Position numbers and translations under genes: made by a program. Positions 13,571 to 14,240 of a stretch of 17,610 nucleotides of DNA are shown here, piece after piece. The DNA is taken from assembly GCA_001871015.1 (NCBI GenBank), contig MNUO01000099.1:1-17610 (forward strand), given 5' to 3'. How positions within the stretch are numbered: the stretch's first letter is position 1; each line of letters opens with the position of its first letter. Source of the stretch: Candidatus Desantisbacteria bacterium CG1_02_38_46. Its GTDB lineage: Bacteria > Desantisbacteria > UBA1551 > UBA1559. The notes beneath the pieces were generated by a model. That model saw only the letters and a program-made list of their open reading frames with translations, was not told the origin of the DNA and made no database searches.

Positions 13571-13642
13571 GCGCTGCTAGCTCAATGGTAGAGCAGTTCC
13601 CTCTTAAGGAAAAGGTTGCAGGTTCAAGTCCTGCGCAGCGCA
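13571..13642 (+). tRNA. tRNA-Lys(CUU)
   Basis: Acceptor GCGCTGC/GCAGCGC, anticodon loop CTCTTAA (CTT), T-arm GCAGG-TTCAAGT-CCTGC, discriminator A. The first 3' end continues CTTT rather than CCA. A second copy of its 3' end at 13788-13807 does carry CCA. The anticodon stem has one mismatch (G27-A43). Confidence 0.93.
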
Positions 13643-13807
13643 CTTTAATGCCCAGACAGGACTTGAAAGACACTTTCCGCCACTGGTAAAGCGACGCCCT
13701 GCACACAGGCGGAGCGTCAGGAAAGTGTCCCGGCTCTGGGCAAATCCGAAATTGTTGCCCGGTTCTATTGAGGATTTGCAAAGGACCAAGTCCTGCGCAG
13801 CGCACCA
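13643..13807 (+). repeat. tRNA-tail element 1 (Lys), ending in duplicated tRNA 3' end
   Basis: A 145-nt insert plus a second copy of AAGTCCTGCGCAGCGCA (13788-13804; first copy 13626-13642), followed by CCA. CAGGACTTGAA (13657-13667) is the exact reverse complement of the tRNA-Lys T-arm segment TTCAAGTCCTG (13623-13633). Internal stems: TGCCCAGA/TCTGGGCA (13649-13656 with 13735-13742), GACACTTTCC/GGAAAGTGTC (13669-13678 with 13720-13729), GCAAATCC/GGATTTGC (13740-13747 with 13772-13779). It shares CGCCACTGGTAAAGCGA and GCGTCAG with the other two elements, with an 18-nt hairpin CGCCCTGCACACAGGCGG inserted between them. No ORF of note. Confidence 0.85.
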
Positions 13808-13808
13808 A

Positions 13809-13889
13809 GCGAGGGTGGCGGAATGGAATACGCGTACGGCTTAGGACCGTATGCCGAAAGGCTTGGGGGTTCAAATCCCTTCCCTCGCA
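13809..13889 (+). tRNA. tRNA-Leu(UAG)
   Basis: Acceptor GCGAGGG/CCCTCGC, anticodon loop CTTAGGA (TAG), long class II variable arm (TGCCGAAAGGCTT), T-arm GGGGG-TTCAAAT-CCCTT with two G-U pairs, discriminator A. CCA is not encoded in either copy of its 3' end. Confidence 0.95.
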
Positions 13890-14017
13890 TTTGCCCAGAT
13901 AGTTAAGGGATTTGAAGCCAACCCGAGCGCCACTGGTAAAGCGAAGCGTCAGTGAGGGTGGCCGGCTTCGGAGGAGGAGTGGAACGACTGGGGAGAAGAA
14001 ATCCCTTCCCTCGCATT
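13890..14017 (+). repeat. tRNA-tail element 2 (Leu), ending in duplicated tRNA 3' end
   Basis: A 107-nt insert plus a second copy of AAATCCCTTCCCTCGCATT (13999-14017; first copy 13873-13891). AAGGGATTTGAA (13905-13916) is the exact reverse complement of the tRNA-Leu segment TTCAAATCCCTT (13871-13882) and can also pair with the duplicated copy. The inner stem is GAAGCC/GGCTTC (13914-13919 with 13964-13969). The 92-nt core 13907-13998 matches 14129-14220 at 90 of 92 positions. TGCCCAGA (13892-13899) is shared with the Lys element. Confidence 0.87.
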
Positions 14018-14037
14018 AAGAAATATATTGAAGAGGT

Positions 14038-14112
14038 GCGGGAGTAACTCAGTGGTAGAGTGTCACCTTGCCAAGGTGAAAGTCGCGGGTTCAAATCCCG
14101 TCTCCCGCTCCA
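14038..14112 (+). tRNA. tRNA-Gly(GCC)
   Basis: Acceptor GCGGGAG/CTCCCGC, anticodon loop TTGCCAA (GCC), T-arm GCGGG-TTCAAAT-CCCGT, discriminator T (14109) and encoded CCA (14110-14112). The CCA is also present in the duplicated 3' end at 14238-14240. Confidence 0.97.
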
Positions 14113-14240
14113 CTTTCAAACTTAGAGAGGGATTTGAAGCCAACCCGAGCGCCACTGGTAAAGCGAAGCGTCAGCGAGGGTGGCCGGCTTCGGAGGAGGA
14201 GTGGAACGACGGGGGAGAAGAAATCCCGTCTCCCGCTCCA
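14113..14240 (+). repeat. tRNA-tail element 3 (Gly), ending in duplicated tRNA 3' end
   Basis: A 108-nt insert plus a second copy of AAATCCCGTCTCCCGCTCCA (14221-14240; first copy 14093-14112). GGGATTTGAA (14129-14138) is the reverse complement of the tRNA-Gly segment TTCAAATCCC (14091-14100); the preceding GAGA would extend the match if one C were restored (tRNA ...CCCGTCTC). The inner stem is GAAGCC/GGCTTC (14136-14141 with 14186-14191). The core is almost identical to that of element 2. The large gene's ATG follows 24 nt later. Confidence 0.87.

What the first reader, a model, noticed from the sequence alone, without database searches (positions are those of the whole stretch)
13623..14240. 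Three consecutive tRNA genes each followed by an element that duplicates the tRNA 3' end
tRNA-Lys, -Leu and -Gly each have an exact second copy of their own 3' end: 17 nt for Lys (plus CCA only in the second copy), 19 nt for Leu, 20 nt for Gly. The copies lie 162, 126 and 128 nt downstream. In all three, the duplication begins at the same tRNA position, directly after TTC of the T-loop (R57). Between the copies lies a related non-coding structured sequence. This is what site-specific insertion with tRNA regeneration would leave, but the elements are far smaller than any integrase-borne island and encode nothing. The four upstream tRNAs of the same array (Pro, Arg, His, Arg) lack them. I know no named family of this form.
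Basis: partly seen in the sequence, partly recalled or inferred. Interest (0 to 1): 0.9.

Follow-up and report, generated by a model that had tools for sequence, protein, structure and literature searches.

The report
Guide-bearing RNA elements inserted at tRNAs
Short non-coding DNA elements that fold as one conserved RNA sit right behind tRNA genes in many little-known bacterial groups, each carrying a 10-letter stretch complementary to its own tRNA and a second copy of that tRNA's end, so they look like a new kind of tiny mobile element that finds tRNA genes by base pairing.

Summary
The three elements belong to a conserved structured-RNA family that I found in about 30 genomes: Elusimicrobiota, Omnitrophota, Aerophobetes, Patescibacteria, UBP18 and the window's own small phylum. 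Of 74 covariance-model hits analysed, 63 follow an intact tRNA or tmRNA; most of the rest lie at contig ends or behind a tRNA 3' fragment. The 17-24 nt duplication starts at R57 in every well-preserved copy. New here: each element opens with a ~10-nt guide exactly complementary to T54-C63 of its own tRNA. At variable positions 57+59 the guide fits in 115/118 cases (shuffled 51.5±4.7), and near-identical bodies in one genome carry different guides. A congener comparison shows filled and empty sites, so these are insertions. They encode nothing, match no Rfam family and are absent from phage, plasmid and IMG/VR searches. Reverse transcriptase (RVT_1) is missing from 22/30 carriers and IS110 from 22/28. 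It missed the guide, the intron-like geometry and the breadth. The inserting enzyme, or ribozyme activity, is unknown. No named family fits in the libraries I could search.

The parts
13571..13643 (+). tRNA-Lys(CTT), intact; R57-73 copy 1 = 13626-13642
   Evidence: ARAGORN; Rfam; sequence
13657..13667 (+). guide of the Lys element, CAGGACTTGAA, complementary to T54-G64 of tRNA-Lys
   Evidence: pairing rules tested on 59 elements
13668..13787 (+). body of the Lys element (long type): GACACTTTCC/GGAAAGTGTC stem, GCCACTGGTAAAGC..GCGTCAG core, GCAAATCC/GGATTTGC helix, ends AAAGGACC
13788..13807 (+). copy 2 of tRNA-Lys R57-A73 followed by CCA (CCA not present after copy 1)
13809..13889 (+). tRNA-Leu(TAG), intact; R57-73 copy 1 = 13873-13889
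13905..13916 (+). guide of the Leu element, AAGGGATTTGAA, complementary to T54-T65 of tRNA-Leu
13917..13998 (+). body of the Leu element (short type, 82 nt): P2 stem, GGCTTCGGAGGA, P3 hairpin, TGGGGAGAAG
13999..14017 (+). copy 2 of tRNA-Leu 3' end (19 nt)
14038..14112 (+). tRNA-Gly(GCC), intact; R57-73 copy 1 = 14093-14109, CCA 14110-14112
14129..14138 (+). guide of the Gly element, GGGATTTGAA, complementary to T54-C63 of tRNA-Gly
14139..14220 (+). body of the Gly element (short type, 82 nt; 98% identical to the Leu body)
14221..14240 (+). copy 2 of tRNA-Gly 3' end (20 nt)

Best explanation
Each element is a protein-free mobile element (about 75-200 nt plus a short spacer) whose DNA folds, as RNA or as single strand, into a conserved three-way junction. 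It inserts between C56 and R57 of tRNA (and tmRNA) genes and duplicates the stretch from R57 to about the tRNA end (17-24 nt), so the tRNA upstream stays whole. Target choice is by base pairing: the element's first ~10 nt (GGGANTYGAA) pair with T54-C63 of the target's sense strand, spanning the insertion point. Its 3' end (GAGAAG in the short type) pairs with an internal CUUC and so presents the joining end next to that helix. Shown: the insertion point, duplication, structure, guide-target match, a filled and an empty site, and the absence of coding capacity. Inferred: that the guide acts at insertion, with a nick at C56|R57 and an opposite-strand nick about 20 nt downstream followed by fill-in, and that something in trans (or the RNA itself) does the chemistry. 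The enzyme is unknown.
For: Structure: 23 short-type elements, 93.6% of pair cells formed, 19 of 27 pairs changed on both sides, covariation score 0.428 against 0.142 in shuffles (0/500), collapsing when slid by one base. RNAalifold finds the same core unaided. Location: 63 of 74 model hits analysed follow an intact tRNA or tmRNA, covering 28 anticodons. Duplication at R57 with length mode 17-24. Guide: 57+59 match own tRNA 115/118, shuffled 51.5±4.7, maximum 71 in 2000; within-genome shuffles 132/135 against 98.9±4.8; Watson-Crick match >=92% at positions 54-62 in elements not used to build the model. Near-identical bodies with different, fitting guides: G213 (91-96% identical, four guides), G400 Leu/Gln (97%). 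Insertion: tRNA-Leu(GAG) filled in G072 and G389, empty in congeners G343 and G388. Tandem units. Where copy 2 differs from the tRNA within 57-63, the guide fits the tRNA in 4 of 5 cases.
Against: No enzyme identified: RVT_1 absent from 22/30 carriers, IS110 from 22/28. Guide action is correlative, and the guide could be an inverted by-product of insertion. In several loci a terminator-like hairpin separates tRNA and element, so co-transcription is not assured. Only one site was compared filled against empty at high identity. The spacer between tRNA and guide is not homologous among copies and is unexplained.
Confidence: 0.62

Rival explanations
1. Intron-like ribozyme: the unit R57-73 + spacer + element is spliced from the pre-tRNA. 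The guide acts like a group I internal guide sequence, pairing first with UUC|RANUCCC at the 5' site, then with RANUCCC of copy 2; the tRNA is rejoined with copy 2. Mobility is by reverse splicing.
For: The guide spans the 5' site and fits the 3' side, as P1/P10 do; 47 of 59 junctions end in G. The T-loop is a known home of group I introns in tmRNA (PMC11915505). Point differences in partly diverged copies 2 keep T-stem and acceptor pairing.
Against: The tRNA is complete without splicing in every case. Copy 2 is clearly degenerate in several elements while the tRNA is intact. Position -1 is C paired with G, not U.G. Too small, and no Rfam group I match. The pairing-preserving changes are all C/T transitions, which keep pairing with G anyway.
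Confidence: 0.17
2. Retro-insertion: element RNA joins the top strand at C56|R57 (partial reverse splicing or a guided nick), the bottom strand is nicked near the tRNA end, and the RNA is copied into DNA by a reverse transcriptase in trans, giving the 17-24 nt duplication.
For: Explains the fixed left edge, variable right edge, target-derived copy, RNA structure and lack of genes.
Against: No RVT_1 gene in 8 of 9 element-bearing Elusimicrobiota or in 14 of 21 other carriers, including near-complete genomes.
Confidence: 0.15
3. The 'guide' is not a guide: the insertion event itself writes an inverted copy of the target T-arm at the element's left end (fold-back or template switching), and recognition uses something else.
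For: Explains how 91-97% identical bodies in one genome have exactly fitting but different guides and why spacers are local and often inverted-repeat-like.
Against: Complementarity falls off sharply after position 63-64 in all lineages (own match 0.81 at 63, 0.51 at 64, 0.41 at 65), a fixed length better suited to a functional guide. A few insertions have mismatched guides, not expected if written afresh.
Confidence: 0.2
4. Remnants or satellites of ordinary tyrosine-integrase islands that use tRNA T-loops as att sites.
For: att identity blocks running from the T-loop to the tRNA end are classic; two Aerophobetes elements lie at tRNA 3' fragments that look like island ends.
Against: No integrase or gene inside any element; the same body occurs with different tRNA ends in one genome, which integrase att sites do not allow; strong RNA covariation and guide matching; none on phages, plasmids or IMG/VR.
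Confidence: 0.06
5. A host-serving cis RNA (tRNA processing, regulation or termination) that arose with the tRNA rather than a mobile element.
For: Always sense-oriented and downstream of tRNAs.
Against: Patchy presence: empty sites in congeners, 0-9 copies per genome at different tRNAs, decayed copies and tandem arrays.
Confidence: 0.05

Closest known systems
Group I introns in the TΨC loop of tmRNA (and tRNA introns)
   Same: Same target loop; an internal sequence pairs across the insertion point and with the 3' flank; mostly a 3'-terminal G
   Different: tRNA is whole without splicing because the 3' part is duplicated; ~75-200 nt; no Rfam group I match; -1 is C-G instead of U.G
Integrase-borne genomic islands and satellites in tRNA genes
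   Same: Insertion at the tRNA 3' part with a second copy of the tRNA end from T-loop to discriminator
   Different: No integrase, no genes, ~0.1-0.2 kb; one body family uses dozens of tRNAs with a matching guide for each
IS110-family elements with bridge RNA
   Same: Non-coding structured RNA with a segment pairing to the target across the cut
   Different: No recombinase gene in the element, IS110 absent from most carriers; 17-24 nt target duplication
Group II introns / non-LTR retroelements (target-primed reverse transcription)
   Same: RNA-to-target pairing; opposite-strand nick would give the duplication
   Different: No Rfam group II match, no reverse transcriptase in most carriers
MITEs, REP/RAYT and IS200/IS605-type non-autonomous elements
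   Same: Tiny, non-coding, hairpin-rich, multi-copy; IS200/IS605 use short guide stretches beside hairpins (my knowledge)
   Different: No terminal inverted repeats noted, strict tRNA targeting, ~10-nt target-specific guide, long target duplication

Membership tests
Group I intron | Conserved P3-P8 catalytic core with G-binding P7 | tested here: not met
   No RF00028 match at E<=10 to the window elements, the 190-nt type or the 210-nt type
Group I intron | U at -1 paired with G of the internal guide | tested here: not met
   -1 is C56, paired with G of the guide
Group I intron | 3'-terminal G | tested here: inconclusive
   47 of 59 junctions end in G; 9 in A, 3 in C
Group I intron | Interrupts its host gene, so that splicing is required | tested here: not met
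   ARAGORN reads a complete tRNA upstream in 61 of 74 hits; copy 2 decayed in several
Integrase-type genomic island | tRNA 3'-end duplication flanking the element | tested here: met
Integrase-type genomic island | Integrase gene in the element (or a mobilising relative) | tested here: not met
   No coding capacity in any element; none on phages or plasmids. A trans-acting integrase was not tested
IS110 / bridge RNA | IS110 recombinase available | tested here: not met
   PF01548 in only 6 of 28 carriers
IS110 / bridge RNA | No long target duplication | tested here: not met
   17-24 nt duplication
Group II / TPRT retroelement | Reverse transcriptase available | tested here: not met
   RVT_1 absent from 22 of 30 carriers
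Any Rfam 15 RNA family | Match to a curated model | tested here: not met
   Only the tRNAs themselves match; no meaningful match to long forms
TnpB/IscB omega-RNA or IS200/IS605 end | Nuclease or Y1 transposase partner | not tested
Integron attC site | Recombined by IntI as folded single strand | not testable with these tools
   No assay; no R/L box motif was sought

The most novel reading that the evidence does not exclude
A new class of protein-free mobile RNA: a small ribozyme-like element that recognises the TΨC arm of any tRNA gene by a ~10-nt guide, joins its 3' end to R57, and re-writes or re-selects its guide at every new tRNA, spreading through several bacterial phyla without reverse transcriptase or its own recombinase.
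Probability: 0.25. Interest if true: 0.96.

Novelty: categorically new. Interest (0 to 1): 0.88.

Why it matters
tRNA genes are the commonest landing sites of bacterial mobile DNA, and until now that meant protein recombinases with fixed att sites. Here a single non-coding RNA-like body lands in tRNAs of 28 anticodons and in tmRNA, with a guide fitted to each, and leaves the tRNA usable. If the guide directs insertion, this is a minimal natural system for programmable insertion; if the RNA is itself catalytic, it is a new ribozyme class. Either way it makes a concrete question testable: how can a 100-nt element without genes choose, copy and enter its target?

Tried and rejected
IMG/VR scans with four patterns, and plasmid and phage BLAST: no real element; one search hits were tRNA-Gly only. 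First pattern search of 98 genomes was dominated by chance hits; only G001 was real. Rfam at relaxed thresholds: nothing beyond tRNA. Reverse transcriptase and IS110 as obligatory partners: rejected by absence. Autonomous version with genes between tRNA and element: looked for at L111 and L134, found only island-like tRNA fragments and unrelated genes. Second empty site at tRNA-Leu(TAA): downstream flanks are rearranged, not usable. Idea that copy 2 comes from mature tRNA because CCA appears only in copy 2 (Lys and four others): 5 against 3 cases, not significant, and explained by a 17-18 nt duplication of a CCA-encoding gene. Group-I-like splicing as a needed step: rejected, since the tRNAs are intact and copies 2 decay. 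Literature: six searches of the held PMC library found no description; subscription papers and preprints are not covered.

Full report
WHAT IS IN THE WINDOW. tRNA-Lys, -Leu and -Gly at 13571-14112 are intact. Each is followed by a non-coding stretch and a second copy of its own 3' end. Copy starts are 13626/13788, 13873/13999 and 14093/14221, always directly after T54-T55-C56. The elements are the only ones in this 88%-complete genome.

Just upstream of each body lies the complement of the tRNA's own T-arm: CAGGACTTGAA (Lys), AAGGGATTTGAA (Leu), GGGATTTGAA (Gly). It pairs with T54 onwards, that is, across the C56|R57 point where the duplication starts. I call it the guide.

RELATIVES. A model built from four elements found, in G001, the only other genome held of this phylum, three elements (one of them already used in the model), each behind a tRNA: Leu-TAG, Ser-GCT and Leu-TAA. 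The same model then hit five genomes of unrelated families, including one behind a tmRNA gene. A pattern scan of 84,980 species genomes gave 74 hits, of which about two dozen are real by the tests 'duplication at R57' and 'guide'. They come from Elusimicrobia and Endomicrobia, Omnitrophica, Aerophobetes, Patescibacteria (including Jorgensenbacteria and Kerfeldbacteria), UBP18 and unnamed bins; the rest are chance. A second model found elements in 9 of 16 Elusimicrobiota genomes, up to nine per genome, and more in 19 carriers.

LOCATION. Of 74 model hits analysed, 61 lie behind an intact tRNA found by ARAGORN; one is behind tmRNA and one behind a tRNA-Arg next to a masked stretch. Three lie behind a tRNA 3' fragment (two look like island ends). 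Six lie too near a contig end or at the head of a tandem array to judge, and two appear orphaned. L111, outside this set, also lacks an upstream tRNA. All are on the tRNA's strand, downstream; 28 anticodons are used.

STRUCTURE. The short type is: guide GGGANTY-GAA; stem P2 with an invariant bulged A; (M)GGCTTCGGAGGA; hairpin P3; GGGGGAGAAG; then copy 2 (RANTCCC...). Guide and copy 2 form P1, and CTTC and GAAG form P4, so the joining point lies at the P1/P4 border of a three-way junction. On 23 sequences 93.6% of pair cells are formed, 19 of 27 pairs show changes on both sides, P2 is 100% paired with all seven pairs changed on both sides, and no shuffle of 500 reaches any measure; sliding by one base drops pairing to about 50%. 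RNAalifold recovers the same core without being told. The window's Lys element and two of G001 are a long type with a covarying 8-bp helix (GCAAATCC/GGATTTGC, GTGAATCT/AGATTCAC, GTAAATCC/GGATTTAC) and a 3' end GGACC that could pair with an internal GGTTC (GTTC in one element), a mimic of tRNA positions 52-56 (my reading).

GUIDE AND TARGET. In 59 elements the guide matches its own tRNA at the variable positions 57 and 59 in 115 of 118 cases, against 51.5±4.7 in shuffles (maximum 71 of 2000). Shuffling only within genomes gives 132 of 135 against 98.9±4.8. The guide was located as the best match near the element's start, which could flatter it; but in every element outside the model-building alignment it sits directly against the body, and in those 38 each of positions 54-62 matches in at least 35 cases. 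The two mismatches at position 60 that read as G-U fit pairing as RNA. Complementarity fades after position 63-64. Near-identical bodies carry different fitting guides: G213 has elements 91-96% identical in ~182 nt with guides for Leu-CAA, Gly-GCC, Gly-CCC/Ala-GGC and Leu-GAG; G400 Leu and Gln bodies are 97% identical with one guide change and one target change. Where copy 2 has drifted within 57-63, the guide fits the tRNA and not the drifted copy in four of five cases.

INSERTION. In one Elusimicrobia genus tRNA-Leu(GAG) carries the element in G072 and G389 but not in G343 or G388; flanks align on both sides and the more distant pair is empty, so the element was gained with the duplication. 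Duplications are mostly 17-24 nt (longer ones are tandem units): the left edge is fixed at R57, the right edge floats near the tRNA end. Units 'R57-73 + spacer + element' also occur in tandem.

MECHANISM. Shown: a structured, non-coding, multi-copy, sporadically present element with a target-specific guide and a target duplication. Inferred: pairing of the guide to the sense strand marks C56|R57; that strand is cut and joined to the element's 3' end; the other strand is cut about 20 nt downstream; fill-in gives the copy. What does the chemistry is open. Reverse transcriptase is absent from 8 of 9 Elusimicrobiota carriers and 14 of 21 others, and IS110 recombinase from 22 of 28, so neither is a general partner. 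The geometry is that of a group I intron's internal guide, and tmRNA T-loops do host group I introns (PMC11915505). But these tRNAs need no splicing, several copies 2 are dead, and core and size do not fit. How the guide comes to fit each new target while the body hardly changes is the central puzzle: either donors with fitting guides are selected, or insertion writes the guide.

NOVELTY. No Rfam 15 family, no phage, plasmid or IMG/VR hit and no paper in the held library describes it. That library lacks subscription papers and preprints, so a prior description cannot be ruled out.

LIMITS. Many genomes are metagenome bins; one good filled/empty pair; the enzyme search covered two families; transcription is untested.

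Noticed in passing
L017 and L044 (G001 tRNA loci): tRNA spacers in G001 are filled with a dispersed short repeat (GAGCAATAGAACAATAGAAAATAGAG-like) that also separates tRNA and element, and truncated element remnants follow tRNA-Gly (GGTTCGAAGCCGACCCG) and the Ser element.
   Followed up: no
L211 (G413:C10), upstream of the element: A tRNA-Lys-like 5' half lies inverted upstream of a T-arm plus acceptor 3' fragment that would complete it; possibly an inversion or island breakpoint inside the tRNA.
   Followed up: no
L217 (G406:C5:31491-31607): Complete element with guide GGGGGTCGAA and copy GACCCCCGTCAGGCACC but no tRNA upstream; an orphan whose tRNA may be lost.
   Followed up: partly
L134 (G408) and L207 (G401), Aerophobetes: Elements sit behind tRNA-Ser 3' fragments preceded by a shared AT-rich TTGTGACCA... 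sequence, which looks like the end of an integrated island.
   Followed up: partly
L148, L160, L168, L173 (G391): Spacers contain strong inverted repeats that include the tRNA CCA (e.g. CCATGAACC..GGTTCATGG), so the tRNA 3' end could be hidden in a hairpin.
   Followed up: partly
L246 versus L146 (G072 and G389 tRNA-Leu-TAA): Two near-identical congeners have wholly different sequence and CCA status downstream of the same tRNA, suggesting an island or rearrangement there.
   Followed up: no
window 106-2700: Large ORF that looks like a type I restriction HsdR-like subunit upstream of radC-like, ndk, purH and glyA genes.
   Followed up: no
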